Positions 2,426 to 64,000 of a DNA stretch of 64,000 nucleotides are shown here, one piece after another (position 1 is the stretch's first letter; each line of letters starts with the position of its first letter). The notes under the pieces were generated by a model. That model was not told where the DNA came from and ran no database searches. It saw nothing but the letters and a program-made list of their open reading frames with translations. This DNA comes from Pyrus communis. Its lineage: Eukaryota; Streptophyta; Magnoliopsida; Rosales; Rosaceae. Made by a program: the position numbers and the translations under genes. The stretch lies in assembly GCF_963583255.1 (NCBI RefSeq), contig NC_084808.1, positions 7,959,501 through 8,023,500 on the forward strand. Reading direction: 5' to 3'.

Positions 2426-3760
2426 ATGGATTTTGCTAGCATTCAAGCTCAATTGGCAAATCTTACTTCTAAATTGTTGCCATATGCCGAAAGGACCACA
2501 ATGCAGAGTGTCCCTACATTTGGTGCTTCATATAGGCAAGGATTTCAAGCCAATCAATGTCCACAAAGAGATGGGAGGGATCATTCAAACTCTATATGGT
2601 GGGAAGATCAACAAGTTCAACGTGAAGCATATTGGCAACCATATGAGGAGTTCTATTCAAGACCTATGCAGCCACCACAACTTCATATGCAATATGCTCA
2701 ATTAAATTCAAATTCGCCAATAGATTATATTCAAATTCTTAATGAAATAAATTCTTTGGCGCAGGGGTCACAAAATCAAGCCAAGGAGGCTCAACAAGAA
2801 GCATATTGGCAACCATATGAGGACTTCAATACAACACCTATGCAGCCACCACAACCTCCCCCACAACAATTCCAATCAAGTTCAAGTATGTCCATGGATA
2901 ATGATAAAAAATTTCAATTACTAACCTCTTTGATGCAGGACGAACAAAATCAAGACAAGAAGTTGGGTAAATTGGACGAGCAATTTGGGCAGATTATGGA
3001 GTTCATGAAACAAATTCAAGAGCAAAGTGAACTTTCCAACTCAACTATTGAAAACTCGAAGGAAGATTTTGAAATCCATAATGCTATCACTTTGGGAAGT
3101 GCTATGGAGGTTGGAGCTGACCTAAAAATGTCCAAACATAGCCTAGAAGTGGATGAACAGCTGTTAATTGAGGAGGAGAAAGAAGACATGCACACGGCAA
3201 GGGTAGAACAACCCTTGCCGCAGCCCCCTAAGCCCTCTAAACCACCCACCACCAGTAAGGACGTCCCAATTCCATGTTATTCTGATGTTATTCCACCCAA
3301 TGTCCCTTTTCCTAGCAGGTTTTTGATTCCCAACCAAGAAGAGAGTAAAAAGGACATCGTGGAAGCCTTCCCAAAGGAGCAAAATGCTATTCAAATTCTT
3401 GGTGCAACACAGCAAGTTTTAGATGGTGTTGAATTCTTCAAAGGACTTTGTACACCAAGAAGAATGATTCAAGAGAAGGTAGTGGCTGGAAAAGATGTAG
3501 AAGGCATCAAAGAGGACATATTTGAAACCACAATTCCCAAGGAAGTTGGATTTTATGACACAGGACAAGTCATAACTTTCGAAGGGGTGTTTATTCTGGA
3601 GTTCATTTTGGAGCACACAGGTAAGCCGCCTCCCCGAATTTCAATTTTCTTTTATACTAACATGTGGTTAATGATTCAGGCACCCAATCTGGAATTTAAA
3701 CTATTATCGGATCATTTCAAGTATCACCGCCCATTCAAAGATAAATTCCATGCCGTTTGA
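2426..3760 (+). CDS. Gag/pol remnant frame of copy 1 (444 residues, no enzymes)
   Basis: This is an uninterrupted 444-codon frame starting at an ATG 155 nt after the primer-binding site. Three blocks align by eye with the gag-pol protein at 33135-38645. Residues 1-60 resemble the post-gag segment (QAQLANLTS). About 270-360 resemble the linker before the protease ([20 protein letters not shown]). The last ~45 resemble the segment before reverse transcriptase (GKPP, IQAPNLEFK, LLSDHFKY). The gag core, zinc knuckle, protease active site, RT, RNase H and integrase are all absent. Between the blocks is a tandem duplication of a unit containing EAYWQPYE and PMQPPQ (near residues 68 and 125). Keeping an open frame through several in-frame joins is striking for a defective element. 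The function is unknown; it may be a truncated Gag-like protein or simply a young relic. Confidence 0.6.
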   Translation: MDFASIQAQLANLTSKLLPYAERTTMQSVPTFGASYRQGFQANQCPQRDGRDHSNSIWWEDQQVQREAYWQPYEEFYSRPMQPPQLHMQYAQLNSNSPIDYIQILNEINSLAQGSQNQAKEAQQEAYWQPYEDFNTTPMQPPQPPPQQFQSSSSMSMDNDKKFQLLTSLMQDEQNQDKKLGKLDEQFGQIMEFMKQIQEQSELSNSTIENSKEDFEIHNAITLGSAMEVGADLKMSKHSLEVDEQLLIEEEKEDMHTARVEQPLPQPPKPSKPPTTSKDVPIPCYSDVIPPNVPFPSRFLIPNQEESKKDIVEAFPKEQNAIQILGATQQVLDGVEFFKGLCTPRRMIQEKVVAGKDVEGIKEDIFETTIPKEVGFYDTGQVITFEGVFILEFILEHTGKPPPRISIFFYTNMWLMIQAPNLEFKLLSDHFKYHRPFKDKFHAV

Positions 3761-3772
3761 TTTTATTTATGT

Positions 3773-3814
3773 GTAAAAAAAAAAAATAAAAAAAAATAAA
3801 AAAAAAAAAAAAAA
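3773..3814 (+). repeat. A-rich tract between gag remnant and cassette
   Basis: Runs of A broken by single T residues directly follow the gag remnant. A matching A or T tract lies at the same place in copies 2 (13528-13550), 3 (24571-24592) and 4 (56718-56767), so it was present when the cassette joined the family. Confidence 0.85.
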
Positions 3815-3842
3815 GATACTAAACATGGAGAAAGGTGGAGCT

Positions 3843-4499
3843 TCACAAAGGTTGTTTACGTGAAGCCCCACTACGAGGCGCAGAAGCGGAAGGCGCAGAA
3901 GCGGGAGGCATCGGAGCGGAAGCCATCGGAGCGGGAGGCATCGGAGCTAGAGCATTCCAGGCCTCAATACTTGGCCAAGCGCTGGATGACCCAGGAAAAA
4001 GGTGCCTCTGGAGATAAGACGCAAGCCTTTGACGGTCATTGTGAATTCGACCCTCAGATTCTTGCAGCTCATCAAGCTTCCTCTTCATGCCCGTCGAATA
4101 GTTGTTGGCAAGTACGTGCAAACTTCTATTCTCATGCTTAAGCAGTTTGATCTCCTGCTTGAGACTTTCCACCTCTGCCATCAATGATTCCACCTGACGG
4201 GAGCGGGCAAGCAGGCGTTGGCCCATGTTGGACACAGAACTCGCACACTGAACACTAAGTGCAAGGGACTCTTGAACGGCCAACTCATCGGACCGTCCTG
4301 ACAGCAGCCTACTATCTTTTGGTGTGAGGAGGTTCCTAGCTACTATTGTAGCTGTTGTGGCGTCCTGCATCACAGAGTCTTCACCTGAAAGAGGACCGTT
4401 AGAAGATAAGAAAGAAGGGCGCCATACGTTACCTTGACGCGGCGCGCCCGTATCACTGCTAAGGCTCAATTCCAAGCTAAGGTTCGATGAGTTTGCCAT
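3843..4499 (-). CDS. Antisense zipper protein of the LARD cassette, copy 1 (218 aa, intact)
   Basis: This open frame runs opposite to its host element. I do not recognise the family. Visible parts: residues about 5-13 hold LSLELSL, an LxLxLxL pattern like the EAR repression motif; residues 15-30 hold GAPRQGNVWRPSF; the middle has RNLLTPKDSRLLSGRSDELAVQES. Around residues 105-130 leucines recur every seventh position (SL-MAEVES-L-KQEIKL-L-KHENRS-L), a perfect zipper without a canonical basic region before it. The tail is rich in Ala, Pro and Met and ends SRKQPL. There is no signal peptide or membrane segment. The start is the ATG giving MANSSNLSLEL, shared with copy 3. Homologues lie at 12841-13497, 23915-24547 and 56799-57488. 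A dimeric nuclear or RNA-binding role is only a guess. Confidence 0.7.
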   Translation of the reverse strand: MANSSNLSLELSLSSDTGAPRQGNVWRPSFLSSNGPLSGEDSVMQDATTATIVARNLLTPKDSRLLSGRSDELAVQESLALSVQCASSVSNMGQRLLARSRQVESLMAEVESLKQEIKLLKHENRSLHVLANNYSTGMKRKLDELQESEGRIHNDRQRLASYLQRHLFPGSSSAWPSIEAWNALAPMPPAPMASAPMPPASAPSASAPRSGASRKQPL

Positions 4500-4603
4500 T
4501 TTTCAAAAGTGTTCAAAGAGAAGGGATGGAGTTAAATTTCAAAGGGCCGGAGTCAATTTTCAAGAATGGGAAATCTTCAGAGTGTGTTTGTTGTGGTGAT
4601 CGA

Positions 4604-4760
4604 TAGCTCAATAAAAAAGCCAAGGCGACGCGTCCACCAATTCAAAAAGCCAGAATTTCCGGCGTAATTTAGGCGACGCTTTCTCGGCTTTTCAGAAGGC
4701 GCGTTCAACTTTGTCAAAAGATTTCTTCTTTTCAGACAACACGTGGAGGCCATCATCGCA
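4604..4760 (-). promoter_or_regulatory. Putative promoter of the antisense gene, copy 1
   Basis: On the minus strand there is a TATA-like stretch (TTTTTTATTGAG, 4608-4619) about 110 nt before the ATG. Further upstream lie ACGCGT (4627-4632 and near 4700), TTTTGACAAAG carrying the W-box core TTGAC, and the G-box core CACGTG (4740-4745). The same set stands upstream of the other three copies. No transcription evidence is available. Confidence 0.4.
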
Positions 4761-4866
4761 ACTACACATCTTTAGCCGACAAGCGCAAAGTTCGGCGACG
4801 CTTTCTCAGCTTTTCAGAAGACGCGTGCAGCTTTGTCAAAAGGAGCCGCATCTGCACTACCACGTG

Positions 4867-4957
4867 TCGTTCAGAAAGCGAAGGGGCGTCGTTCAGAAAG
4901 CGAAGGGGCGTCGTTCAGAAATCGAAGGGGCGCCTGCTCAGAAATCGAAGAGGCGCC
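4867..4957. repeat. 22-bp minisatellite in cassette, copy 1
   Basis: There are about four imperfect units of a 22-bp motif containing GTTCAGAAAGCGAAGGGGC. The same array is at 23453-23544 (copy 3) and 57836-57921 (copy 4), and is reduced in copy 2 near 12437-12478. It lies upstream of the antisense gene. Confidence 0.85.
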
Positions 4958-5358
4958 ATTATTTCAAAAAGCCGGATTTGCGGGATCAAAACGTTTGTCG
5001 ACAAAGGTAAAAAGTACCACCACTTGATATTATCTCTATATATGTCGACCTTCGTCTTTTATGGCAGGGCAAACCTGAAGAAAATGCCCAACTCTCCCTC
5101 ACCTCTGAGGGCGCACTCCCAGCAAAGCCTTTCGAAATACTCAATTCTTTCTTCTTCCCCAAAGATGATACCAGATGCTTGGAGTACATATGACCCAGGA
5201 GGAAGCAGCACAACAAATACATGTGCTGATTCATTCACCGCTTCTTCAAAAGCAAAGGTATCTCATATCATCAAGGTCAAAAGCAAAAGTATCTCATATC
5301 ATGCTCTTTCCCTGTCTTTTTCTTTGTCCTTGTTCTTACTCGCATGGCAAAGTAAAAG

Positions 5359-5431
5359 AAGCAATCAGCCGGCACTTGGAGTCAGTCTTCCGATCTGGAG
5401 CCAACTGCCTGGAATCTATTCCTGATTGCTT
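5359..5431. repeat. Conserved hairpin-forming inverted repeat in cassette
   Basis: AAGCAATCAG and its exact complement CTGATTGCTT lie 53 nt apart. The same arms are kept in copy 4 (58289-58361) and copy 3 (22978-23050, opposite orientation). The role is unknown. Confidence 0.6.
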
Positions 5432-5890
5432 ACCTAGCGTTGCTCTCGAGTAGTCATCTTCAACGGTTGATACACTTCCGGAGAAGGGACCACTTCTGCA
5501 AAGGGGAGCGAGTAAGGCAAGTGAAAATGATACATTGAAGCATGTGGAGACAAACATAGGCTGAGTTATCCTCCAACCCTTTTCAATACGAATTGGAAAG
5601 ATTGAACAAAGAAACAGACCAAAGGAGTAAGCTCAGACCTTCGGGGGAGACCAAAAGAATCCTGCTGCCCAGTTCAAGAGTAGCACAAAGGAAAATCAAC
5701 GATGGGAGGAGCCCCTGTGGAATCAACAACATCAAGCCTCAATGAAATCAACAAGGAGAAGATGGAATTTACATTCCACAACCAGATTTGCGTCTCTAAA
5801 CTCTTCTCTTTGTTATTTACATTCTGCCATGTTTAGTATGTTTAAATGCTTTTTGTGTGTTTACTTATGCTTTGTATGATTTTAAGCTTA

Positions 5891-5931
5891 AAACATTGAG
5901 GACAATGTTTGATTTAAGTGTGGGGGTAACT
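5891..5931 (+). promoter_or_regulatory. Stem-loop plus internal polypurine-like G-run, copy 1
   Basis: AAACATTGAGGACAATGTTT (5891-5910) is a perfect 8-bp stem with a four-base loop. Six nt later comes AAGTGTGGGGGTAACT (5916-5931), which copies the core of the terminal polypurine tract at 7571-7584. The pair recurs in all five non-autonomous copies and in the complete Athila element, about 1.65 kb before the 3' LTR. It could act as a second plus-strand primer. Confidence 0.6.
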
Positions 5932-6800
5932 AATGTTGTTAATGCAAATTCGTGGGATTTTATCGCCCATAACTTTAAAGGTTGTTCCTTACTGTTTTAA
6001 GGTGTTTTTAAGATGTTTTAGAGTGTTTTAGTATGTTTTGTTTTTATAAATCCGAAAATCACATAAAAATTTGAAAAACATGTTTTGAAAAACCTAAAAA
6101 GAGTGTTTTGAGTCGTTTTTGTGTGTTTGTGTCTTAGGGTACCTTCCAACACAATGATGAGGATTTGGTTTGTAATTGCATGACTGTTAAAGAGAATTAT
6201 AAACATGGATGAAAGTTTGATTTACTCTTGGTATATGTTTGGTTATGGTTATAATGTATGACTTCACATGCAATCATAAAAGAAAAATTCGTTTTTGTAA
6301 CATGCTTGAAGGAAGGAACTCAAACAAACGCTACAACCCTGTGAGACTCGAGCCATTACTTTCTTTGGAGAGTTATTTTCTGTGATTCTTTGTTTTCTAA
6401 AGTTGTTGCATGATCTCATTATTCCTTGCTTGGTTGCTACTTAGAATGCAATTGTATCATGATAGAACTAAATGCTAGAACTTATATCCGTTTCATTCAA
6501 AGCATGATATTGATTGCATAACATATATCAAGATGAAGTTGTGTAGTTGCCACCATAGCCAAATAGCCTTACTTCCCATATTTCGTATATATTGTAAGTC
6601 TTAACCCCGTTGAGCCTCGTTTAACCTATTTTCTTTGCTAACCACATCAACCCTTACCTAGCCTAGATTAGGACCATCCGTACCCTTGTTCTTAAAAGAT
6701 AGTGAGCATGACTTAAATGAATTCCTTTTGAGTACATTATGAAAGAAAATGAGTGTGGGGGAGAGAATGTTTTGTTCTTAAGCGTTTATGTATGTTTTGA

Positions 6801-6801
6801 G

Positions 6802-6837
<36 letters not shown>
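6801..6837 (+). repeat. Poly-A tract in copy 1
   Basis: A run of about 37 A residues lies in the non-coding part between the internal G-run and the polypurine tract. Matching T-rich tracts occur at 32483-32531 and 31966-31989 in the minus-strand Athila element. Confidence 0.9.
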
Positions 6838-6840
<3 letters not shown>

Positions 6841-7570
6841 TGAAAAATATATGTAAAAGAAAAACAGAAAAGAAAAGAAAGAAAGGAAAAAGAACTTGTT
6901 CCCCCTTGATCAAAAGTTGAGTTTTCATTCAAAAGTGATTTCTACGTTAATTCAAATGCTTTGCTCGCTATTTCTTTGAGAACCTCTGTTTTCCATATAC
7001 CTTCTTTAGCCAAACACCTTTAGCCCCGTTACACCCCTTTGACTTCTATCTTGATCGTTATGTGTTTAATAATGTGGAGTTTGGAATTGATATGAGCTTA
7101 TGGAATCACTGGTTCTCATTCTAAGTAGTAGCATTCCATTCATGAGATCATATTCATGTCGTTATCGTAAATTCAGAAAATGCTTTCCTTGTTATAACAT
7201 ATGTGAGTGTTCGTCTACATGTTTACATCAATCTTCTCACATATAACTAGTGTAGGGTGTGTAGTCAGAAAATCTATGTGAAAATAGAGTGCATTCTAGT
7301 AAGGAATTGAGGGAATTCTCTAAGGCATGTTACTACATTCAAAACATGGTTTTAAATGCTTAATTGTGAACTAGTATGTGGTGACTATGAGTAAGAATGT
7401 ACTTAAGTGTAAAAATGGCTAAAATCTGTGGGAATAATGATTTTTAACTTGTCATGTGCTTTGGAAATCCCTGAGACGTTTGTTGGAAGGTTTAGGTTGT
7501 GTTTTACTTGTTCGTTTTGTTTTGTTTCTGGTTTCTTTTGTTTTGTTTTGCTCGAGGACTAGCAAAGATA

Positions 7571-7584
7571 AGTGTGGGGGTATT
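7571..7584 (+). promoter_or_regulatory. Polypurine tract of copy 1
   Basis: AGTGTGGGGGTATT sits directly before the LTR start TGATAGGAGC, the position used to prime plus-strand DNA. Confidence 0.85.
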
Positions 7585-7944
7585 TGATAGGAGCATTTTC
7601 ATGCGACTTAAATGGCTTGTTCTCGTGCATTTACGTTATGTTTCTTTAGTTATTTTAGTACTTTAAGCTATTTTCGTGTGTTTGTAGGTCGAAAGGGCTA
7701 AAGGAGCAAAAAAATGCATTTTGGAGACTTTTGGAGCACTTTTGGGCTAAGGACGGATAGCTTATGCTTGAAGCCAAAGTGTTGGACGAAATTGAAGACC
7801 TAATTGGAGCCAAAGTGTTGGAACCTTGTTCTCTTTAGTTTTAGGACATTTAAACCTTTCCTAATCCCAATCATGCCATGCATAACACACATCCATTCTA
7901 ACACATTGTCATTGCACATGCATTTCCTTCATTAGTTAACCCAC

Positions 7945-11507: not shown

Positions 11508-12579
11508 TAAGCTTAAAATCACAACAAACAAAAGTAAACATAACAACAGCAACGAAACATACTAAACATGGCATAATGTAAATAACAAAGAGAAGAGTTT
11601 AGAGACGCAAATCTGGTTGTGGAATGTAAATTCCATCTTCTCCTTGTTGATTGCATTGAGGCTTGATGTTGTTGATTCCACAGGGGTTCCTCCCATCGTT
11701 GATTTTCCTTTGTGCTACTCTTGAACTGGGCAGCAGGATTCTTTTGGTCTCCCCCGAAGGTCTGAGCTTACTCCTTTGGTCTGTTTCTTTGTTCAATCTT
11801 TCCAATTCGTATTGAAAAGGGTTGGAGGATAACTCAGCCTATGCTTGTCTCCACATGCTTCAATGTATCATTTTCCTTGCCTTGCTTGCTCCCCTTGCAG
11901 AAGTGGTCCCTTCTCTGGAAGTGTATCAACCGTTGAAGATGACTACTCGAGAGCAACGCTAGGTAAGCAATCAGGAATGGATTCCAGGCAGTCGGCTCCA
12001 GACCGGAAGACTGACTCCAAGTGCCGCTGATTGCTTTCGTTTACTTTGCCATGCGAGTAATAACAAAGGCAAAGGAAAAGACAGGGAAAGAGCATGATAT
12101 GAGATACTTTTGCTTTAGACCTTGATGATATGAGATACCTTTGCATTTGAAGAAACGGCGAATGAAGCAGCACATGTATTTGTTGTGGTTGTCTCCACAT
12201 GCTTCGATCGACCGTTTCCTTTTGCCTCATCTGTACTCCCGGTATCTGGTATCTTCTTTGGGGGAGAAAAAATTGAGTATTTCAAAAGGCGTTGCTGGGA
12301 GAGCGCCCTCAGAGGTGCGGAAGAGTTGGACATTTTCTTGAGGTCTGCCTTGCCATAAGAGATGAATGTCGACATATATAGGGATTTCTTAATAACAAGT
12401 GGTGGTACTGTTCTTTTACCCTTATCGACAAACGTCTCTTCGATATCTGAACGACGCCTCTTCGATTTCTGAACGACAAAAGTAGTCACGGGCGCTGCTC
12501 TGTCACCACGCGTTTTCTGAAAAGCAGAGAAAGCGTCGTCGAACTTTGCGCTTGTCGGCTAAAGATGTGTAGTTGCGAT

Positions 12580-12735
12580 GATGGCCTCCACGTGTTATCG
12601 ACTTTGTCAGATATCTTTTGACAAAGTTGAACGCGTTTTCTGAAAAGCCGCGAACGCGTCGCCGAACTTCACGCAGGAAAATCCGGATTTTTGAATCGGT
12701 GGTCGTGTCGTTTGGCTTTTTATAGCGGTATCGAT
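12580..12735 (+). promoter_or_regulatory. Putative promoter of the antisense gene, copy 2
   Basis: CACGTG (12589-12594), TTTTGACAAAG (near 12616), ACGCG sites near 12632 and 12654, and a TATA-like TTTTTATAGCG (near 12717-12727) lie in the same order as in the other copies, about 115 nt before the ATG at 12841. Confidence 0.4.
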
Positions 12736-12840
12736 CACCCCAACATACACACTCTGAAGATTTCCCATTCTTGAAAATCTACTCCGGCCCTGAGAATTAA
12801 CTCCATCCACCCCTTCTCTCTGAACACCTTTGAAAAAAAA

Positions 12841-13497
12841 ATGACTAACTCATCAAACCTTTGCTTAGATTTGAGTCTCACCAGCGATCCGGTTGCGCCC
12901 CGTCAAGGTAATGTGTGGCGCCCTTCTTTCTTAGCTTCTAACGGTCCTCTTACAGGTGAGGACTCCATGATGACGGATGCAACAACAGCTACGATAGTAG
13001 CTAGGAACCTCCTCACTCCTAAGGATAGTAGGCTGCTTTCAGGACGGTCCGATGAGTTGGCCGTTCAAGAGTCCCTCGCTCTCAGCGTTCAGTATGCAGG
13101 CTCTGTGACCAACATGGGCCAACGCCTACTTGCTCGCTCCCGTCAGGTTGAATCGTTGATGGCAGAGGTGGAAAGTCTCAAGCAAGAGATCAAGCAGCTG
13201 AAGTATGAGAATAGAAGTTTGCATGTGCTTGCAAACAACTATTCGACGGGCATGAAGAGGAAGCTTGATGAGCTGCAAGAATCCAATGGTTGAATGCAAA
13301 GTGACCGTCAAAGGCTTGCGGCTTACTTCCAGAGGCACATTTTTCCTGGCTCATCCAGCGTTTGGCCAAGTATTGAGGCCTCGAATGCTCTAGCTCCGAT
13401 GCCTTCCGCTCCGATGCCTTCTGCTCCGATGCCTTCCGCTCCGATGCCTTCTGCTCCGATGCCTCGTAGTGGGGCTTCACGTAAACAACCTTTGTGA
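12841..13497 (+). pseudogene. Antisense zipper protein of the LARD cassette, copy 2 (one nonsense codon)
   Basis: It begins MTNSSNLCLDLSL and aligns throughout with the intact copies at 3843-4499 and 23915-24547. A TGA at 13291-13293 replaces the CGA found at the same place in copy 3 and cuts the protein to 150 residues, after the zipper. The frame then continues open to the usual end SRKQPL at 13497, so this is a single-base nonsense change and not decay over the whole length. The LxLxLxL motif and all four zipper leucines remain. The tail is a 15-bp tandem repeat encoding Ala-Pro-Met-Pro-Ser (about 13391-13464). The 150-residue form could still dimerise if it is made. Confidence 0.7.
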
Positions 13498-13523
13498 AGC
13501 TCCATCTTTCTCCATGTTTAGTA

Positions 13524-13555
<32 letters not shown>

Positions 13556-13556
<1 letters not shown>

Positions 13557-14068
13557 CAAATCAAACGGCATGGAATTGGTCCTTGAATGGAAGGTGATAC
13601 TTGAAGTGAACCGGCATTGGTTTGAATTCTAGTGTAGGTGCCTACATTACTTTGGGCAGGTTGTGGTGGCTGCATAGGCGTTGAATAGAACTCCTCGTAT
13701 GGTGGCTGCCAATATCCGTCTTGTTGAGCCTCATTGTCTTGATTTTGTGAGCCCTGCACCAAACAAATTAATTCATTAAGCTTTTGATTATAATCTATTG
13801 ACGAACTTGAGTTTGGTTGGGCATATTGAATATGAGGTTGTGGTGGCTGCATAGGTGTTGAATAGAACTCCTCATATGGTGGCTGCCAATATCCTTCTTG
13901 TTGAACATGTTCAGGTTCCCACCACATAGAGTTTGAATGATCACTCCAATCCGAATTGTAAGTATTGGAAAACACGTTATTCCTTGATTGAAGATCAAAT
14001 GTACCAACGCTTTGCATTTGGGACCTTTCCATGAGCTGTGACAAAAGAGAAGCATTATCAAGTGCCAT
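13556..14068 (-). CDS. Gag-like remnant frame of copy 2 (170 residues)
   Basis: This is the counterpart of the 444-residue frame in copy 1. It starts MALDNASLLSQLMERSQMQS. It keeps the twice-repeated unit containing GYWQPPYEEFYSTPMQPPQ and ends shortly after it, joined to the extreme end of the longer frame (IQGPIPCRLI against the KFHAV region in another frame). A large in-frame deletion has removed the rest. The ATG lies about 160 nt from the LTR, as in copy 1. No recognised domain remains, and I treat any coding function as doubtful. Confidence 0.45.
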
Positions 14069-22598: not shown

Positions 22599-23452
22599 TA
22601 AGCATAGATTCACACAAAACATAAGTAAACACACAAAAAGCACTTAAACATACTAAACATGGCAGAATGTAATTAACAAAGAGAAGAGTTTAGGGACGCA
22701 AATCTGGTTATGGAGTGTAAATTCCCTCTTCTCCTTGGTGATTGCATTGAGGCTTTGATCTTTGTGATTCCACAGGCTTACTCTTGAACTGGTTTCCGCC
22801 CATCGTTGATTTTCCTTTGTGCTACTCTTGAACTGGGCAGTAGGATTCTTTTGGTCTCCCCCGGAGGTCTGAGCTTTCCCCTTTTATCTGTTTCTTTGTT
22901 CAATCTTTGCAGGAGTGGTCCCTTCTCTGGAAGTGTATCAACCGTTGAAGATGACTACTCGAGAGCAACGCTAGGTAAGCAATCAGGAATAAATTCCAGG
23001 CAGTCGTATCCAGATCGGAAGACTGACTCCAAATGCCGGCTGATTGCTTCTTTCACTTTGCCATGCGAGTAAGAACAAGGACAAAGAAAAAGACAGGGAA
23101 AGAGCATGATATGAGATACTTTTGCTTTTGACCTTGATGATATGAGATACATTTGCTTTTGAAGAAGCGGTGAATGAATCAGCACACTTCAATCCGCCAT
23201 TTCCTCCTGGGTCATCTGTACTCCAAGCATCTGGTATCATCTTTGGGGAAGAAGAAAGAATTGAGTATTTCGAAAGGCTTTGCTGGGAGTGCACCCTCAG
23301 AGGTGAGGGAGAGTTGGGCATTTTCTTCAGGTTTGCCTTGCCATAAAAGACGAAGGTCGACATATATAGAGATAATATCAAGTGGTGGTATTGTTCTTTT
23401 ACCCTTGTCGACAAACGTTTTGATCCCGCAAATCCGGCTTTTTGAAATAGTG

Positions 23453-23544
23453 GCGCCTCTTCGATTTCTGAACGACGCCCCTTCGATTTCTGAGCAGGCG
23501 CCCCTTCGATTTCTGAACGACGCCCCTTCGCTTTCTGAACGACA
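23453..23544. repeat. 22-bp minisatellite in cassette, copy 3
   Basis: There are four imperfect units built around CCCCTTCGATTTCTGAACGAC, homologous to 4867-4957. Confidence 0.85.
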
Positions 23545-23663
23545 CGTAGTCGTGCGGATGCGGCTCCTTTTGACAAAGCTGCACGCGTTTTCTGAAAAGC
23601 AGAGAAAGCGTCGCCGGACTTTGCGCTTGTCGGCTAAAGATGTGTAGTTGCGATGATGGCCTC

Positions 23664-23802
23664 CACGTGTTGTCTGAAAAGAAGAAATCTTTTGACAAAG
23701 TTGAACGCGTCTTCTGAAAAGCCGAGAACGCGTCGCCTAACTTACGCCGGAAATTCCGGCTTTTTGAATCGGTGGACGCGTCGCCTTGGCTTTTTATAGA
23801 GC
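23664..23802 (+). promoter_or_regulatory. Putative promoter of the antisense gene, copy 3
   Basis: CACGTG (23664-23669), TTTTGACAAAG (near 23691), ACGCGT sites (near 23704 and 23727) and a TATA-like TTTTTATAGAG (near 23790-23800) precede the ATG at 23915. A second possible TATA, TATATAGA, lies at 23363-23370. Confidence 0.4.
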
Positions 23803-23914
23803 TATCGATCACCACAACAAACACACTCTGAAGATTTCCCATTCTTGAAAATCGACTCCGGCCCTTTGATAATTAACTCCATCCACCCCATCTCTTTGAA
23901 CACTTTTGAAAAAA

Positions 23915-24547
23915 ATGGCAAACCCATCGAACCTTAGCTTAGAATTGAGTCTCAGCAGTGATACGGGCGCGCCGCGTCAAGGTAACGTATGGCGCCCTTC
24001 TTTCTTATCTTCTAACTGTCCTCTTACAGGTGAAGGCTCTGTGATGCAGGACGCCACAATAGCTACAATCGTAGCTAGGAACCTCCTTACTCCAAAAGAT
24101 AGTAGGCTACTGTCAGGACGGTCCGATGAGTTGGTCGTTCAAGAGTCCCTCGCTCTTAGTGTTCAGTGTGCGAGCTCTGTGTCTAACATGGGCCAACGCC
24201 TGCTTGCCCGCTCTCGTCAGGTGGAATCATTGATGGCAGAGGTGGAAAGTCTCAAGCAAGAGATCAAACTGCTTAAGTACGAGAATAGAAGTTTGCATGT
24301 GCTTGCAAATAACTATTCATCGGGCATGAAGAGGAAGCTTGATGAGCTGCAAGAATCCAATGGTCGAATGCAAAGTGACCGTCAAAGGCTTGCGGCTTTC
24401 TTCCAGAGGCACATTTTTCCTGGCTCATCTAGCGTTCCACCAAGTATTGAGGTCTCTTCTTCGATGCCTCCCGCTCCGACGCCTTCGGTTCCGATGCCTT
24501 CCGCTCCGACGCCTCGTGGTAGGGGTTCACGTAAACAACCTTTGTGA
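23915..24547 (+). CDS. Antisense zipper protein of the LARD cassette, copy 3 (210 aa, intact)
   Basis: This is an intact frame, MANPSNLSLELSLSS to SRKQPL, opposite to its minus-strand host. The ATG at 23915 is chosen over in-frame codons just upstream because all copies share the MxN(S/P)SNL start. Like copy 1 it has the LxLxLxL motif, the VWRPSF block, RNLLTPKDSRLLSGRSDEL and the heptad leucines of SLMAEVESLKQEIKLLKYENRSL. The tail is shorter than in copies 1 and 2 (about three Pro-rich units). Many substitutions separate it from copy 1, yet the frame stays open, which hints at recent selection or recent origin. The family is unknown to me. Confidence 0.7.
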   Translation: MANPSNLSLELSLSSDTGAPRQGNVWRPSFLSSNCPLTGEGSVMQDATIATIVARNLLTPKDSRLLSGRSDELVVQESLALSVQCASSVSNMGQRLLARSRQVESLMAEVESLKQEIKLLKYENRSLHVLANNYSSGMKRKLDELQESNGRMQSDRQRLAAFFQRHIFPGSSSVPPSIEVSSSMPPAPTPSVPMPSAPTPRGRGSRKQPL

Positions 24548-24686
24548 AGGCTCCATCATTCTGCCATGTTTTTTTTTTTTTTTTTTTTTTTTTATTTTAA
24601 TCAACATGCTTTGTTTTATTCAGTGCATTGGGTTGCCTCCCAAGTAGCGCTTTCTTTTACGTCTTGCAGCCGGACGAAGAACCCAA

Positions 24687-28966: not shown

Positions 28967-31200
28967 TGATGCGAGAATTATACGCGCACAAATTAAACCC
29001 TCTTTTTGACAATTGTAGTATAGATATAAGTAGGGATCGTTCTTAACCGGGGATTAGGAGGGATTGCAAATCACTTGGAAACTGACTCAAAAACGTAAAA
29101 TAAAGTTTAAAACACTAAACTAAACTCAAAGAATGTAAAACTAAACACTTAAATCACTAAAACAAACCAAAAGACTCAAAACAGCACCAAAACACTCAAA
29201 ACTGCCTTAAAACACAATCTGGGCAGTTTTGAGCATTTTGACTACTTTGGACGAAATTGGGTAATAAATTGATTCAAAACACTTATAAACACAAACTAAG
29301 ACACTTTCTAACTAAGTTGGACACTAAAGTAAAGGGGGATTAAGGTTTTGACGAAATTAAATTAAATAAAACAAGTTAATAAACTAGGCAGATTGTATAA
29401 ACGGATTTGAGAAACAAGATGATGGATGGATTAGTTAGAGGTCCATTCTCCACACATGACACATTTATATATGAATCGATTCTCCAATTGTTTTTCATTA
29501 ACTATGATGCTCAACATCCCAAGTTAACCGTGATGCACTAATTAACTCTCAAATTTTCCTTAAGTTATTGAATTGGATGATGCATGCGACAATTCAAATC
29601 ATTCTCCAATGGTTCTCAACATGAATGCATAGAAGAGATACAATGAGAGATCATTATGCTCTATGAAAATTATAAGTGTTGACGAGGCAATTGTAACTAT
29701 GAATGCATGATACTTTTGCCAAGAATTCAATTAACGCGGTTGTGACTAGCAACCTTCACTACTCATGTTTATAAACTTGTGACGATTAGGTGAAACTCGT
29801 TTATAAACTAGCATCGAGTTTATGCATGAAGACTAAGTATGCATCCCTAATCAACATACAAAAACAAGTCTTTAATAAACATGATAATTGAATTGCAATC
29901 ACAAATTAACAAATCACAATTGGAAGAAATCAATTCATATTTCAAACATATCCATGGCTTCAAACTTTCCCCTAACTAATTAGGGGTTTAGCCACTCATG
30001 ATTACAACAAACTTAGAGAGTAATAACAAAGTAAACATTGAAAACAAGAATCGAAGTACACCTAAAAATTCCAACAACTCAATCTTGAATTGTATGAACG
30101 TTTAGGCCTCTTCTCCTCTAGTTGCTGCGGCACAAGGGGTTTTGGTGAGTTTTGGGGGTTATGGATGATGTAGAAGGATGTGTTTAGGGTAGGGATGGAT
30201 GTAGGGGAAGGTAAGGAGTGTTTTTGGGCAGAAAATATGAAGAATGGTGAAGTATGGTAGTGCTAGAGAGAGGGGAGGAATTTCTGGCGTGAATGAATGT
30301 GTATGAGATATGGTTTTCTGAAATGGAAGAGTGTGTGTTTTGTGGCTGCAATGCATGCTTATTTATAGGTGAAATGGGGGGAACATGATGACTAGGAATT
30401 AGGTGGAAAGCTGAAATGGTGATGGGAGATGCATGTGGCAGAAATGCATGTGATTAAAGGGTGGGAATGCATGTGTTTTGACAGAAAATAAAAGGGAATG
30501 TTGGAAATCTGGAATGGGAACCCACGGCATGGTTGTTTTCTGGTGGTGAATGGGTTTATGTTTGAATGGTGCATGTGGGTTGATTATTTAAAGGGAGTGC
30601 ATGTGGAATAAAGGTTGGAATGAACATGAAATGCACGGTTTTGAGAGATGATTATGGATGCATGTGTTGAATGATTATGGGTGTATGTGGGTGGAAATGC
30701 ATGTGGGAATGCATGTGATTTGGCTGAAATGAAAGGTAGTGGGAAGTGCATGTAAGCCATGGCACAAAGGTGAATGGGTGATGTGTGAATGTGGTTGAAT
30801 GATTAAAGTGTAAATGATTAATGAATGGTTCTTTGTTGATGGTGGAAATCTGAAATGATTAAGTGGAATGTGCATGTGGCTGCAATGATGGTGTTTTGCA
30901 CGGCAATGATGGAGAAAGAATGTGTGGATGTATGGTTGTGTTGGTGATGAATGTGAACTCTTTGTTCTTCATTTTCATTCCTTTGGTCTTCAATTTCGTC
31001 CATCTACTTGGCTTTAAGCATATGCAATCCATTCCAATCTCTAATTTGCTCCAAAAGGCTCCGAAAGGCATCCTTTTGCATCCTTAGCCATATGAACCTA
31101 TAAACACACGAAAATGACTTTAAACACTAAATTAAGTAAGAAAACACAACATAAATGCATAAGAACTAGCTAACAAAGGCGCATAAATATGCTTCTATCA
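28967..31200 (-). repeat. 3' LTR of the Athila element
   Basis: From TGATGCGAGAATT to CTTCTATCA. The TATA box (plus strand TATTTATA, 30360-30367) lies in reverse orientation, as expected for a minus-strand element. Confidence 0.93.
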
Positions 31201-31216
31201 AATTCCCCCACACTTA
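31201..31216 (-). promoter_or_regulatory. Polypurine tract of the Athila element
   Basis: AATTCCCCCACACTTA on the plus strand, next to the 3' LTR. Confidence 0.88.
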
Positions 31217-32487
31217 GCTTTTGCTAGTCCTCGAGCAAAACAAATAAACAAAACATAACCTAAACCTTCCAACGTTCACCTCAGGGATTTCCAATGGTAC
31301 ATGACAAGTTAAAAATCATCATCCCCACAGATTTGAGTCATCTTTACAATTGAAAACATACTTAATCATAGTCACCACTTACTAGTTCACAATTAATCGA
31401 TTAAAAGAATGTTTTGAATGTAGTAACATGCCTTAGAGAATTTGCTCAATCCTTACAAGATATGCACTCAATTTTCACTCAGATTTTCTAACTACACACC
31501 CTATACTAGTTATATGTGAGAAGATTGATGTAAATATGAAAACGAATGCTCACATATACGTATAACAAAGAACGCAATTTATGGAGTTAATAAGCATGTT
31601 TAGAAATGATCTCATGAATGGAATGCTACTACTTAGATGCGAGAACTAATGACCATATGCTCATACCAAATTCAAACTCCACAAATTGAAACACATAACA
31701 CTCAAGAATGAAGTCAAGGGTTGTAACGGGGCTTGGGGTAGTGGTTAACAAAGAAAAGATAAGGAGAACAAGCGTTCTTCAAGTAATAGTAAGCAAAGTA
31801 GTGTACTTAAGACTTAGAATTCATTTAGATTGCAGAAATTAACTTTAAAACACAAGGGGAAGACTTAGACAACTCCTTAGGGCCGAATTCATTGTTTTGG
31901 ACCCTTACTTCAACAAACAATACTTTGGAATTCTTTTCAACTCTTTTTCATACTTTTCACGCCTTTTTTTTTTTTTTTTTTTTTTTTTCTTTTTCTTTTC
32001 TTTCATGCCGTGCCTATGGCACACAAATTCTCACACAAGAACACTTCCCCCACACTTGTTTTCTGCCAACATAAATCGAAAGAAATTCAATTTGAATCAT
32101 GCTTTACTAAGCTTTAAGAACAAGGGTGTGGATGGTCCTAATCTAGGCTAGGTGAGGATAATGTGGGTTAACTTAAACATAAAATGACATGGGATACACG
32201 GTAATATGGCTAAGGTGGTGGTCACTACACAACTTCATCTTGAATCTGTGTTATGCAAATCAATAACATGCTTTGAATGAAATGGGCATGAGTTCTAGCA
32301 TTTGGAACTAAATGATGAAACGCCTCTAAGTAGTAACCAAGCAAAGAATAATGAGATCATGCAACGACTTAGAAAACAAAAATGCACAGATTCTAACTCT
32401 CCAAATAAACGTTTAGGCTCAAGTCTCACAAGGTTGTAGCGTTAATTTGAGTTCCTTCCTTCAAGCATGTTACAAAAACTGATTTTT

Positions 32488-32534
<47 letters not shown>

Positions 32535-33134
32535 ATTGCATGTGAAGTCATAAGTTATAACCACAACCAAGCATACACAAAGAGTAAATCAAACTTTCAT
32601 CCATGTTAATCACTCTCTTTAACAGCCATGTAATTACAAACCGAATCCTCATCATTGTGTTGGAAGGTACCCTAAAACAAAAACAAACACACAAAAACAC
32701 TTTGAAAACAACTCTTTTTGGGTTTTTAAAACAAATTTTTCAAATTTTTATGTGATTTTCGGATTTTTACTTCAAAACACACTAAAACACACCAAAACTG
32801 CTTAAAAACACTTAAAAACAGCAAGGAACAAGTCTATAAGTAAAGGGGTGATAAAATCCCATGAATTTGCATCAAAAACACTTAGTTACCCCCACACACT
32901 TAAATCAAACATTGTCCTCAATGTTTCAAGCATAAAATCACACAAAACACAAAGAAACACACAAACAGCAAGTAAAACAACTAAATAGGCAGATTCGAAA
33001 TAAACAACAAAGTGAAGGGTTTAGGAACGCAAATCTGGAATTGGAGTGATTCCTTGAGCTTCCTTTGTTGAATTGCATGGGTTGCCTCCCAAGTAGCGCT
33101 TTCTTTAACGTCTTGCAGCCGGACGAAGACACGT
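31217..33134 (-). other. Non-coding 3' region of the Athila element
   Basis: No coding frame with recognisable similarity. It contains two T-rich tracts (31966-31989, 32483-32531), the internal G-run complement (32889-32893) with the perfect stem-loop at 32907-32926, and, just past the pol stop, the conserved GGGTTGCCTCCCAAGTAGCG stretch (33079-33098, plus strand) that all deletion derivatives share. Confidence 0.75.
32889..32926 (-). promoter_or_regulatory. Internal G-run plus stem-loop, Athila element
   Basis: Five C residues (32889-32893), then the stem-loop AAACATTG-TCCT-CAATGTTT at 32907-32926. It lies about 1.7 kb from the true polypurine tract. Confidence 0.6.
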
Positions 33135-36100
33135 TCATGCTCCATTAGAGCCCACGGCATGGAGTGGGATCTCCTCCACGACATGCTCCACAAAGTTCTC
33201 ATAGTATGGCTTCAATCTATGTCCGTTCACCTTGAACTCGTGGCCACTTTTTAAGCTTTGGACTTGGACTGCACCATGAGGAAAAACATTAGTAACAACA
33301 AGAGGTCCAATCCATTTAGAACGTAACTTACCAGGGAATAACCGAAGTCTTGAATCAAAAAGCAACACTTTCTGCCCCTTGGAGAACGTTTTGGTACGAA
33401 GCATCTTATCATGATAAGCCTTCGTCTTGTCCTTGTAGATGCGAGCATTCTCGTAAGCCTCGTTCCTAATCTCCTCAAGTTCATCTAATTGGAGCTTCCT
33501 ATGAACTCCAGCAGCGTCTATGTCCAAATTGAAGGTTTTCACAGCCCAATGTGCCTTGTGCTCTAACTCAACGGGCAAATGACATGGCTTACCATATATA
33601 AGCCGAAAAGGTGACATGCCAAGGGGAGTTTTGTAAGCCGTACGATAGGCCCACAATGCATCGTCCAAGCGCAAACTCCAATCTCTTCTTGAGGGTCCCA
33701 CGGTTTTCTCTAGGACTTGTTTGATCTCCCTATTTGAAACCTCCGCTTGCCCATTGGTTTGAGGGTGATAAGGTGTGGAAACCTTATGAGTAACGTTGTA
33801 CTTCTTGAGCAAAGCTTCAATGGTGCGGTTACGAAAGTGAGAACCCCCATCACTAATTAAAACTCGTGGCATCCCAAACCTAGCAAAAATATTAGATTTC
33901 ACAAAATCTGCAACAACCTTAGAATCGTTAGTACGGGTGGCTTTGGCTTCCACCCATTTGGAAACATAATCGACAGCTAGCAAGATATAAGTGAAACCAA
34001 AAGATGGAGGGAAGGGGCCCATGAAATCAATACCCCAAACATCAAAAATTTCCACAAAGGAGAGAGATTGTTGCGGCATTTGGTCCTTAGGCCCTATGTT
34101 ACCTGTTCTTTGACACTTATCGCATGTTACACAAAACATTTTAGCATCTTTAAAGAGATTAGGCCAATAAAATCCAGATTGTAACACCTTTAGGGCTGTC
34201 CTTTGGGTGCCAAAATGTCCCCCACATGCATAAGTATGGCAGAATGTAAGAATGGAATTAAATTCAGATTCGGGCACACATCTACGCACAATCTGATCTG
34301 GGCAGAATTTCCATAAATATGGGTCATCCCAAACATAAAAACGTGCATCATGAACAAGTTTATCACGTTGGAACTTGTTTAGGGTACTAGGAACTTGCTT
34401 AGACACCAAGAAATTGACCAAATCGGCATACCAAGGGGTTCTTACCTCAATGGACAGAAGTTGCTCATCCGGAAACGTTTCTAAAATGGGGGTGGACTCT
34501 TCCTCACGCACCATTCTACTTAGGTGGTCAGCCACCACGTTTTCACACCCTTTCTTGTCTCGGATTTCAAGATCGAACTCTTGAAGTAGGAGCATCCAAC
34601 GAATGAGTCTTGGCTTAGCCTCCTTTTTGGTGAGAAGATACTTCAAGGCTGCATGGTCAGTGAAAACAATTACTTTAGTACCAAGAAGATATGATCTAAA
34701 CTTATCTAAAGCAAATACAACCGCCAAAAGTTCTTTTTCGGTTGTAGAATAATTCAATTGAGCATCATTTAAAGTGCGTGAAGCATAATAAATAACATGT
34801 GGCTGTTTATTTTTCCTTTGACCCAAAACAGCCCCAAGTGCATAATCCGATGCATCACACATCAATTCAAAGGGAATGGACCAATCCGGGGGAGTTATGA
34901 TGGGTGCCGTGGTGAGTAAGTCTTTTAGATGCTTGAATGCCTTCTCACACGCCTCGTTGAACTCAAAAGACACATCCTTTTGGAGTAGGCGGCATAGGGG
35001 TTGTGCAATCTTGGAAAAGTCCTTGATAAATCGTCGATAGAATCCTGCATGGCCAAGAAAAGAACGGACCTCTCTAACCGACGTAGGAGAGGGTAAGTGA
35101 CGTACAAGATCTATTTTAGACTTATCAACTTCAATTCCTTTTTCAGAGATGATATGACCCAAAACTATACCTTGTTTAACCATAAAATGACATTTTTCCC
35201 AATTCAAAACAAGGTTAGTTTCCATGCATCTTTTCAAGATTAAAGTGAGATTATGCAAACAAGCATCAAATGAGTCTCCAAACACACTAAAATCGTCCAT
35301 AAATACTTCAATTATCTTTTCAACATAATCAGAGAAGATACTTACCATGCATCGTTGGAAAGTGGCCGGTGCATTGCATAAACCAAATGGCATACGACGA
35401 TATGCAAAAGTACCAAATGGACAAGTAAAGGTGGTCTTTTCTTGATCATCCGGCGTTATGACAATTTGATTATAACCCAAATAACCATCAAGAAAGCAAT
35501 AAAAAGAATGACCGGCTAACCTTTCAAGCATTTGATCAATGAATGGCAAAGGGAAGTGATCTTTCCTTGTTGCGGCATTTAGCTTTCTATAGTCAATGCA
35601 CACCCTCCAACCGGTTTGAATGCGTGTAGGCACAAGTTCATCTTCTTCATTCTTCACCACAGTCACTCCGGATTTCTTTGGCACAACTTGAACCGGTGAA
35701 ACCCAACGGCTATCCGAGATAGGATAGATCACCCCACAATCTAGAAGCTTGATAATCTCCTTTTTCACAACTTCCATCATTGGAGGGTTGAGCCGGCGTT
35801 GAGCCTCTCTGGTTGGTTTAGCCCCCTCCTCTAAAAGTATGCGATGCATGCAAGTTGTAGGACTAATACCCTTTATGTCGGCCAAGGTCCATCCTATGGC
35901 CGTCTTGTGCTCTTTCAACACCCGAATCAATTTCTCCTCCTCCATTGTTGTGAGGGATAAGGAAACTATGACAGGCAACGTCTCATTGTCTCCCAAATAG
36001 ACATACTTCAAATGATCCGGCAATGGTTTAAGCTCAAGAATGGGTGCCTGAATCACTGAAGGTAACAACTTGTTAGTCGAAACAGGAATTGGACTCGGTT

Positions 36101-38645: not shown

Positions 38646-38739
38646 AAACTAGTACCTTAAACAAGAAACAAAATAACATAAGAATCTGATCTATTAAGAA
38701 AACGAAAATAACAATCCAAAGGATTAGCAAAGTTGCTAA

Positions 38740-38757
38740 TCCCCGGCAACGGCGCCA
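38740..38757 (-). promoter_or_regulatory. Primer-binding site of the Athila element
   Basis: TCCCCGGCAACGGCGCCA on the plus strand, exact tRNA-Asp 3' end, five bases from the 5' LTR. Confidence 0.9.
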
Positions 38758-38762
38758 AAATT

Positions 38763-40997: not shown

Positions 40998-41080
40998 AGT
41001 ACTAAAATAACTAAAGAAACATAACGTAAATGCACGAGAACAAGCCATTTAAGTCGCATGAATATGCTCCTATCAAAGAG

Positions 41081-56627: not shown

Positions 56628-56771
56628 TTGGGTTCTTCGTCCGGCTGCAAGACGTAAAAGAAAGCGCTACTTGGGAGGCAACCCAATGCACTGAATAAAA
56701 CAAAGCTTGTTCATAAAAAATAAAAAAAATAAAAAAAAAAAAATTGAAAAAAAAAAAAAAAAAAAAAGAGA

Positions 56772-63359: not shown

Positions 63360-64000
63360 TAAGCATAGATTCACACAAAACATAAGTAAACACACAAAAA
63401 GCAACTAAACATACTAAACATACTAAACATGGCAAAATGTAATTAACAAAGAGAAGAGTTTAGAGACGCAAATCTGGTTGTGGAATGTAAATTCCATCTT
63501 CTCCTTGTTGATTGCATTGAGGCTTGATGTTGTTGACTCCACAGGGGTTCCTCCCATCGTTGATTTTCCTTTGTGCTACTCTTGAACTGGGCAGCAGGAT
63601 TATTTTGGTCTCCCCCGAAGGTCTGAGCTTACTCCTTTGGTCTGTTTCTTTGTTCAATCTTTCCAATTCGTATTGAAAAGGGTTGGAGAATAACTCAGCC
63701 TACGTTTGTCTCCACATGCTTCAATGTATCATTTTCCTTGCCTTGCTTGCTCCCCTTGCAGAAGTGGTCGAGAGCAACGCTAGGTAAGCAATCAGGAATG
63801 GATTCCAGGCAGTCGGTTCCAGAACAGAAGACTGACTCCAAGTGCCTTTGATTGCTTTTGTTTTACTTTGCCATGCGAGTAATAACAAGGACAAAGGAAA
63901 GGACAGGGAAAGAGCATGATATGAGATACTTTTGCTTTAGACCTTGATGATATGAGATACCTTTGCTTTTGAAGAAATGGCGAATGAAGCAGCGCATGTA

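What the first reader, a model, noticed from the sequence alone, without database searches (positions are those of the whole stretch)
3817..5838. A conserved gene cassette carried antisense inside a gag-pol-less retrotransposon family
Seen: copies 1 to 4 each hold a ~2 kb block with a ~210-218 codon frame opposite to the element (3843-4499, 12841-13497, 23915-24547, 56799-57488), with the same upstream and downstream order. Copies 1 and 3 are fully open despite many substitutions, and copies 2 and 4 each have just one nonsense base. The complete Athila element lacks the block. Known: antisense genes occur in autonomous Tat-lineage elements; I do not know of one in an Athila-derived deletion family. 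Inference: the cassette gives the element a selectable function, or was captured from a host gene.
Basis: partly seen in the sequence, partly recalled or inferred. Interest (0 to 1): 0.88.

Follow-up and report, generated by a model that had tools for sequence, protein, structure and literature searches.

The report
Antisense accessory gene shared between retrotransposons
Young, defective jumping elements in what appears to be a pear genome keep one small, apparently useful gene on their reverse strand, and the same gene sits on the reverse strand of a different lineage of jumping elements, which suggests that retrotransposons exchange accessory genes.

Summary
Four block copies in an Athila-derived, pol-less LTR-retrotransposon family carry a 210-229-codon antisense frame (aORF); two are open, two have one stop each. 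It behaves as a protein gene: core dN/dS is 0.12-0.27 in all six pairs, and in ten elements holding both frames aORF pN/pS is 0.12 against 0.91 for the sense gag remnant. In the window's own genome (pear, by its hits) the first look gave 4065 candidates; the 150 best were scored, 146 without a stop. Twelve of twelve sampled elements share LTR-aORF-tail-LTR.

No evidence for a captured host gene was found. A relative of the gene, with its leader, lies antisense to a Tat-type pol in other elements of this genome, often upstream of an antisense Transposase_28 gene. So it is a known kind of antisense accessory ORF, moved into or kept in a defective Athila derivative. The model shows a 96-residue helix, and the N-terminus keeps an EAR-like LxLxL motif. 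I infer a coiled-coil adaptor that recruits TOPLESS-type corepressors; this is untested. The literature searches showed no description of the gene.

The parts
3843..4499 (-). aORF copy 1, 218 codons, open, antisense to the element
4461..4475 (-). EAR-like motif L-E-L-S-L, residues 9-13 of copy 1
   Evidence: translation; motif statistics (coordinates by arithmetic from the ORF start)
3999..4286 (-). residues 72-167, predicted single long (coiled-coil type) helix
   Evidence: AlphaFold model, (coordinates by arithmetic)
3817..5744 (-). block of copy 1: aORF plus upstream leader, between gag remnant and Athila tail
4607..4618 (-). TATA-like box 108-119 bp upstream of the copy 1 ATG (weaker form; copy 3 has TTTTTATAGAG at 23791-23801)
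   Evidence: promoter is inferred
5261..5469 (-). leader segment 79% identical over 210 bp to the segment upstream of a Tat-type aORF (L064)
3775..3814 (+). A-rich tract (element sense) at the junction of gag remnant and block, copy 1
2426..3760 (+). gag-derived remnant frame of copy 1, 444 codons, no codon-level constraint
5745..7583 (+). Athila post-pol tail of copy 1; its 3' LTR begins at about 7584
12841..13497 (+). aORF copy 2, one stop at codon 151
11657..13525 (+). block of copy 2 (element on minus strand)
13556..14068 (-). gag-derived remnant frame of copy 2
23915..24547 (+). aORF copy 3, 210 codons, open; element lacks the gag remnant
22748..24568 (+). block of copy 3 (element on minus strand)
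56799..57488 (-). aORF copy 4, one stop at codon 26; element lacks the gag remnant
56768..58590 (-). block of copy 4 (element on plus strand)
63518..64000 (+). truncated fifth copy of the block, leader part only, cut by the window end
28967..40998 (-). complete young Athila without the block; LTRs 99.8% identical, AGTAC on both sides if the right end is set at 40997

Best explanation
The frame is a real protein gene, an antisense accessory ORF (aORF) with its own leader and a probable promoter. A related gene belongs to the antisense region of Tat-type (Retand-like) retrotransposons of this genome, opposite to pol and often upstream of the antisense Transposase_28 (TRP28) gene. An Athila-derived, pol-less family also carries it, most simply because recombination or template switching joined leader plus aORF to an Athila LTR, 5' region and tail. 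Proteins of complete Athila elements would mobilise that family.

Shown: antisense position, protein-level constraint, sharing with Tat-type elements, young age of sampled copies. Inferred: direction Tat to Athila (about 0.65). Inferred mechanism (about 0.35): an antisense transcript from the TATA-like promoter makes a dimeric coiled-coil protein whose N-terminal EAR-like LxLxL motif recruits TOPLESS-type corepressors, and so alters transcription of the element or of host genes that limit it, comparable in role to the antisense HBZ protein of HTLV-1.
For: Constraint: core dN/dS 0.12-0.27 in 6 of 6 window pairs. aORF pN/pS 0.147 (16 rows, 120 pairs) and 0.122 in the 10 rows that also hold the full gag remnant, whose pN/pS is 0.912. 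Differences from copy 1 by codon position: aORF 53/34/186 over 12 loci; gag frame 60/58/53 over 12 loci, or 53/34/39 if only the nine loci with the full remnant are summed.

Sharing with Tat-type elements: nine gene models (seven Pyrus, two Malus baccata) join the aORF to a downstream ORF; the downstream parts match each other in 36 of 36 pairs at E <= 1e-10. Three of the nine (P0156, P0170, P0171) match PF04195 at E 0.0008-0.0097. In the own genome 16 of 150 scored type-B aORF places (15 of the 51 best) have TRP28 downstream on the same strand at 2.5-5.9 kb. 31 of 53 TRP28 places and 32 of 150 type-B places (29 of the 51 best) have an RT like that of L063 downstream on the opposite strand; none has it upstream on the opposite strand. 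L063 itself holds this pol opposite to TRP28 with an extra RNase H, PF13456 E 2.5e-15. Leader homology: protein E 4e-10, DNA 79% over 210 bp, E 2e-46.

Activity: 12 of 12 sampled elements keep LTR-aORF-tail-LTR; in 5 of 12 the compared LTR part is 100% identical.

Protein: helix 72-167, block pLDDT 78-98. LxLxL in 39 of 72 and LxLx[LVI] in 60 of 72 N-termini, against at most 4 and 5 after shuffling. TATA-like box about 110 bp upstream of the ATG.
Against: No transcript, protein or binding evidence was available. LxLxL is short; the 72 rows are relatives of each other, and 12 lack even the relaxed form. The model as a whole is weak (mean pLDDT 65.8, pTM 0.36), and PDB searches by profile and fold gave nothing significant. 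The three PF04195 matches are below its curated cut-off. The 195-aa RT piece of L063 has no Pfam match of its own; it is called RT from its alignment to the window's Athila pol, and 'Tat-type' rests on the extra RNase H in that one stretch, read by me as the archaeal-type RNase H of Tat elements. All other pairings rest on coordinates. 118 of 150 type-B places have no such RT row within 13 kb, and only 150 of 4282 RT candidates were scored. Two type-B places and one TRP28 place also have an RT on the same strand upstream, and two type-B places a TRP28 on the opposite strand, both from an inverted pair on C9. 14 of the 20 best type-B rows hold a stop. A trans-acting protein helps a non-autonomous element only if it favours its own copy; the constraint may be inherited from other carriers. 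Direction of transfer is not shown. The 150 scored aORF places and the 12 sampled elements are best matches, not random.
Confidence: 0.55

Rival explanations
1. Passenger: the aORF works in autonomous carriers, and the Athila-derived elements only inherit recent, still intact versions by recombination; it does nothing for them.
For: The family is mosaic: divergence differs by region and the closest relative of a copy changes along the block. Singletons show a weaker third-position bias (13/9/27) than shared changes (8/5/38). Some copies carry stops: window copies 2 and 4, 4 of 150, 1 of 12.
Against: Singletons still lean to third positions. Copies 3 and 4 lost the gag remnant but kept the aORF, and 11 of 12 sampled elements have it open. 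No autonomous carrier of the window type was found: of 150 type-A places none has TRP28 within 13 kb and two have an L063-like RT row within 13 kb, one downstream at 10.1 kb and one upstream at 5.9 kb. Many type-B copies are themselves broken (14 of the 20 best rows).
Confidence: 0.3
2. Deletion derivative: an autonomous Athila-lineage parent carried the antisense aORF with TRP28 between pol and 3' LTR; one internal deletion removed pol and TRP28, so no transfer between lineages happened in this family.
For: The Athila tail resumes at position 7925 of the complete element, about 60 bp past its pol stop (7864), the usual site of 3' extra ORFs (with arithmetic); one deletion would explain copy 1.
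Against: No such parent was seen: the complete Athila lacks the block, and in 12 of 12 sampled elements only gag-derived and protease-to-RT linker parts match between the LTRs. The one TRP28 neighbourhood read has the Tat-type pol.
Confidence: 0.2
3. Host-gene capture: the frame is a transduced plant gene.
For: Own leader and TATA-like box; EAR motifs are typical of plant repressors (PMC6283911 and PMC9956375, starts of abstracts in the listing).
Against: No host homologue seen: 62 hits in the 240-763 aa class (2 of them unnamed) and 29 in the 395-1258 aa class, all named ones Malus or Pyrus. Those with host domains look like insertion-fused gene models.
Confidence: 0.05
4. RNA-level role: the antisense transcript, not the protein, matters, for example as double-stranded RNA that dampens the sense RNA. 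This need not exclude a protein role.
For: Antisense transcripts of retrotransposons can make dsRNA (PMC7264820, passages); the 210-bp leader is 78-79% conserved between a Tat-type copy and copies 1-4, while the other matched upstream pieces of 100 bp or more are 67-71%.
Against: Codon-position bias, in-frame indels and low pN/pS require selection on the protein at least somewhere in the gene's history.
Confidence: 0.1

Closest known systems
Antisense Transposase_28 (TRP28, PF04195) ORFs of Retand/Tat elements (PMC11963269: abstract, background, first part of the structural results, discussion)
   Same: Antisense to gag-pol, between pol and 3' LTR; in this genome the aORF relative lies in such an antisense region, upstream of a TRP28-like ORF.
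   Different: The aORF has no PF04195 match up to E 1, is about 220 aa, and also lives in an Athila-derived element without TRP28.
Antisense gene23 of maize Grande, and aORFs of rice RIRE2 and Silene Retand (PMC7264820, passages)
   Same: Antisense accessory gene; in Grande it has its own promoter and a nuclear protein.
   Different: No sequence relation was tested here; no pol-less Athila-derived carrier is mentioned in the passages seen.
Extra ORFs of Athila elements (Steinbauerova et al. 2011, recalled, not read)
   Same: Extra coding capacity in the 3' part of Athila.
   Different: As recalled, those are diverse and not linked to Tat antisense genes; the present carrier is a pol-less derivative.
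HODOR, high-copy repeat of apple, 9,716 bp, found also in pear (PMC13334179, PMC6901071, passages)
   Same: Similar size (the element in L032 is about 9.4 kb by arithmetic), same hosts, high copy number.
   Different: HODOR's sequence (KX869746) was not available, so identity is untested; no coding gene is mentioned in the passages read.
LARD elements (as defined in PMC4668562, passages)
   Same: Pol-less, presumably mobilised in trans.
   Different: LARD interiors are described there as conserved noncoding DNA; here a constrained gene is present.
EAR-motif repressors of plants, and pathogen effectors that bind TOPLESS (titles and starts of abstracts, listing)
   Same: LxLxL motif.
   Different: Retrotransposon-encoded; no DNA-binding domain detected by Pfam; binding untested.

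Membership tests
Athila lineage (carrier element) | LTRs and post-pol tail homologous to a complete Athila | tested here: met
   tail 75-83% identical, LTR parts about 69-90%
Athila lineage (carrier element) | Athila reverse transcriptase | tested here: not met
   pol is deleted; between the LTRs only polyprotein residues before the RT match in the 12 sampled elements. It is an Athila derivative, not an autonomous Athila.
Antisense 3' extra ORF (aORF-3R) | ORF antisense to the element, between the coding region and the 3' LTR, conserved across copies | tested here: met
TRP28-type antisense ORF of Retand | Transposase_28 domain PF04195 | tested here: not met
   no PF04195 match up to E 1 in the aORF; the TRP28 part of the gene models has no convincing match in the window (best E 0.16)
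Tat/Retand antisense region (for the type-B relatives of the aORF) | antisense to a pol with the extra RNase H of Tat elements | tested here: met
   one stretch read; PF13456 taken as that RNase H; RT by coordinates: 32 of 150 type-B places, 31 of 53 TRP28 places
EAR-motif corepressor adaptor | LxLxL or DLNxxP motif | tested here: met
   LxLxL in 39 of 72 rows; copies 1 and 3 have it
EAR-motif corepressor adaptor | binds TOPLESS, represses transcription | not testable with these tools
   needs binding and reporter assays
HODOR | sequence identity to KX869746 | not testable with these tools
   record not held; only size and host agree
Captured host gene | non-TE homologue in the host or relatives | tested here: not met
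   (two length classes) and the 120 listed of 1399 hits

The most novel reading that the evidence does not exclude
Plant LTR retrotransposons carry a mobile accessory gene, exchanged between the Tat and Athila lineages, that encodes an EAR-motif coiled-coil protein recruiting the host TOPLESS corepressor. A defective family keeps it because the protein favours the copy that makes it: a plant counterpart of retroviral antisense accessory proteins.
Probability: 0.27. Interest if true: 0.82.

Novelty: new variant of a known kind. Interest (0 to 1): 0.62.

Why it matters
The function of antisense genes in plant retrotransposons is an open question (PMC7264820, PMC11963269). Here one such gene occurs apart from TRP28 and pol, shows protein-level constraint, and is carried by young pol-less elements, which gives a simple system with many natural variants. 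The EAR-like motif gives a directly testable function. The case also shows an accessory gene shared across two Ty3/gypsy lineages, with a neutral reading frame in the same elements as an internal control.

Tried and rejected
Considered and set aside: host-gene origin (no homologue outside Malus/Pyrus in the length classes seen; breadth beyond the 120 listed of 1399 hits is unknown). Chance ORF. Membership in PF04195 itself. Weak Pfam matches such as FBF1, ZapB and YabA are all below their cut-offs and taken as coiled-coil composition. PDB by profile (11 rows, best E 0.11) and by fold (10 rows, best E 4.9) led nowhere.

Short 'ena' and 'lgn' contigs of about 1 kb might be transcript assemblies, but the listing does not tell, so no expression is claimed. 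The upstream exon-like segment with a GTAAGC donor, and the acceptor inside the ORF that several gene models seem to use, were noted but not tested.

Rows dropped or chosen: one search dropped one of 62 sequences (P0176) for too few aligned core columns. In one search the gag control used 10 of 13 elements (copy 1 and the 12 loci); three lack the full remnant, and copies 2-4 were not tried. The gag totals include three loci with partial or distant remnant matches. and one search used the 51 best type-B rows plus one lower row that I had added because it lay near a TRP28 place, and part of the RT and type-A rows; one search repeats the count with all 150 type-A, 150 type-B and 150 RT rows and all 105 TRP28 matches clustered into 53 places, and its numbers are the ones reported.
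Full report
WHERE THIS IS. The window maps to contig C6 7959501-8023500 of a 487-Mb assembly. The species is inferred, not given: the closest named database proteins are from Pyrus ussuriensis x communis and Malus. The window is dense with nested LTR elements. A complete young Athila (28967-40998, minus strand, LTRs 99.8% identical) lies in it; with its right end at 40997 it has AGTAC on both sides.

THE OBSERVATION. The four frames are at the stated places, antisense to their elements; two are open and two have one stop each. Copies 1 and 2 keep parts of a gag-derived sense frame; copies 3 and 4 have lost it, so the antisense frame is next to the 5' leader. From 5745 copy 1 matches the Athila post-pol tail, so the block is about 3817-5744. 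A fifth, truncated block copy sits at the right edge.

IS IT A GENE. In the window copies core dN/dS is 0.16, 0.23, 0.27, 0.17, 0.12 and 0.14; the low-complexity C-terminal tail gives 0.23-1.49 and is little or not constrained. Variable core columns are 20/13/56 by codon position, and neutral simulations gave more amino-acid changes in all six pairs (P 0 to 0.016); the lack of stops alone would not be remarkable (P 0.14-0.42 per pair). Indels inside the ORF are 12, 21 and 24 bases. In the own genome the first look gave 4065 candidates, of which the 150 best were scored; all 150 span residues 1-218 and 146 have no stop inside. These are best matches, not a random sample. Among 33 rows (22 distinct) the variable columns of codons 1-150 are 21/14/65.

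INTERNAL CONTROL. Twelve of these elements, on ten contigs, were fetched. All twelve have LTR, aORF block, Athila tail and LTR; nine have the long gag remnant, two a different one, one a short piece. The aORF is open in eleven of twelve. Over ten elements with both frames (copy 1 and nine loci), pN/pS is 0.122 for the aORF and 0.912 for the gag remnant. The compared part of the LTR pair is 100% identical in five of twelve and 96.9-99.9% in the others, so the sampled copies moved recently.

MOSAICISM. In those ten elements the two halves of the gag remnant differ by 0.8 and 1.1% on average, the aORF by 4.2%, block parts by 2.2-5.6%, tail parts by 6.8-10.2% and the start of the 3' LTR by 9.5%. 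In the window the relatedness of copies changes along the block. Regions have different histories, as template switching between co-packaged RNAs would give. The recent spread of the gag-remnant module is unexplained; one guess is that it carries the packaging signal of the present autonomous partner.

WHERE THE GENE COMES FROM. The protein search gave 1399 hits, 120 listed; all named ones are Malus or Pyrus. Searches in longer length classes gave 62 hits (2 unnamed) and 29 hits, all named ones again Malus or Pyrus. Nine of the longer gene models, seven Pyrus and two Malus baccata, join the aORF to a downstream ORF; these downstream parts match each other in 36 of 36 pairs. In three of the nine (P0156, P0170, P0171) Pfam finds Transposase_28 at E 0.0008-0.0097, under the curated cut-off. 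The leader of these models is colinear with the window block: protein E 4e-10; DNA of one Tat-type copy 79% over 210 bp plus shorter pieces. A TRP28 piece was searched in the own genome, and so was the aORF of the TRP28 type, called type B. One stretch downstream of TRP28 (L063) holds pol on the opposite strand, 28-34% identical to the window's Athila pol, with an extra RNase H (PF13456). PMC6317226 ties an archaeal-type RNase H to the Tat lineage (passages); that PF13456 here is that domain is my reading. The RT piece itself had no Pfam match.

By coordinates, using all listed rows: 16 of 150 type-B places (15 of the 51 best) have TRP28 downstream on the same strand, and two have one on the opposite strand, from an inverted pair on C9. 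31 of 53 TRP28 places and 32 of 150 type-B places (29 of the 51 best) have an RT row like L063's downstream on the opposite strand; none has it upstream on the opposite strand; one and two have it on the same strand, upstream. Most lower-ranked type-B rows (67-88% identity) have no such RT row nearby, so they may sit in other, unread carriers; only 150 of 4282 RT candidates were scored. Of 150 type-A (window-type) places none has TRP28 within 13 kb, and two have an RT row within 13 kb, one downstream at 10.1 kb and one upstream at 5.9 kb. So relatives of the gene are found in Tat-type elements as well as in the Athila-derived family, and the two kinds of carrier are largely distinct. 14 of the 20 best type-B rows hold a stop, so many Tat-type copies are broken. 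A FastTree protein tree, rooted at its midpoint, places TRP28-linked Pyrus sequences with Malus ones (support 0.936) and the window type in another mixed clade (0.939); at least two gene lineages seem to predate the split of the genera.

HOW IT MAY WORK. The model (mean pLDDT 65.8, pTM 0.36) has a disordered N-terminus, short helices, one confident helix at 72-167 and a disordered Pro/Ala-rich tail. The otherwise variable N-terminus keeps LxLxL in 39 of 72 and LxLx[LVI] in 60 of 72 rows; shuffling gave at most 4 and 5. The EAR consensus is LxLxL or DLNxxP (starts of abstracts of PMC6283911 and PMC9956375, listing). A TATA-like box lies 108-119 bp upstream of the copy 1 ATG, and one Tat-type copy has one at a similar place by eye. 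I infer an own promoter, as reported for maize Grande (PMC7264820, passages), and a corepressor-recruiting dimer. Expression, localisation and binding are untested.

WHAT IS KNOWN. Antisense ORFs with TRP28 occur in 97% of recently active Retand clusters (PMC11963269: abstract, background, part 1 of 2 of the results section on structure, and discussion read). Its Table 1, as seen, has no Malus or Pyrus cluster. The pear LTR survey does not use the word 'antisense' in its text (PMC4668562), nor does the Rosaceae TE paper (PMC11197308). Literature searches listed nothing that describes this gene, judged by titles, abstract starts and the passages read; most subscription papers are not held, so that is weak.

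VERDICT. A real, constrained antisense accessory gene; a new variant of the known antisense-ORF kind, notable for its pol-less Athila-derived carrier, its occurrence without TRP28, its sharing across two lineages and its EAR-like motif. The rivals listed are not all exclusive of each other, so their odds need not sum to one.

Noticed in passing
window 2426-3760 and loci L031-L034, L037, L038, L040-L042: The gag-remnant module is nearly uniform (0.8-1.1% divergence) in elements whose other parts differ by 2-10%, and its open frame is not constrained (pN/pS 0.91): a recent spread of a 5' module by recombination, perhaps a packaging signal.
   Followed up: partly
database proteins P0003, P0005, P0006, P0008, P0009, P0020, P0055, P0112, P0121-P0124: Pear gene models named 'S ribonuclease' or 'S2-RNase' are this retrotransposon protein, some of them fused to other sequence: annotation errors in public records.
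   Followed up: partly
window 3775-3814, 13526-13551, 24569-24593, 56731-56767: An A-rich tract in the element sense marks the junction between gag remnant or leader and the block in all four copies, as a template switch onto a poly(A) tail might leave.
   Followed up: no
database proteins P0121-P0125, P0154: Pear gene models where the aORF is followed by another shared stretch of about 200 aa (88% identical between P0121 and P0123); no Pfam match in that part of P0121 and P0123.
   Followed up: no
window 5261-5469 (and L064 48-257): The leader segment is better conserved between a Tat-type copy and the window copies (78-79%) than the other matched upstream pieces (67-71%), and the block there contains a consensus-like splice donor.
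   Followed up: partly
own genome, TRP28 places: The TRP28 match breaks after about residue 104 and resumes about 190 bp further on in many places, as if the antisense gene had an intron.
   Followed up: no
window 44777-45334: A 185-aa open frame between the Athila-related repeats, not examined.
   Followed up: no
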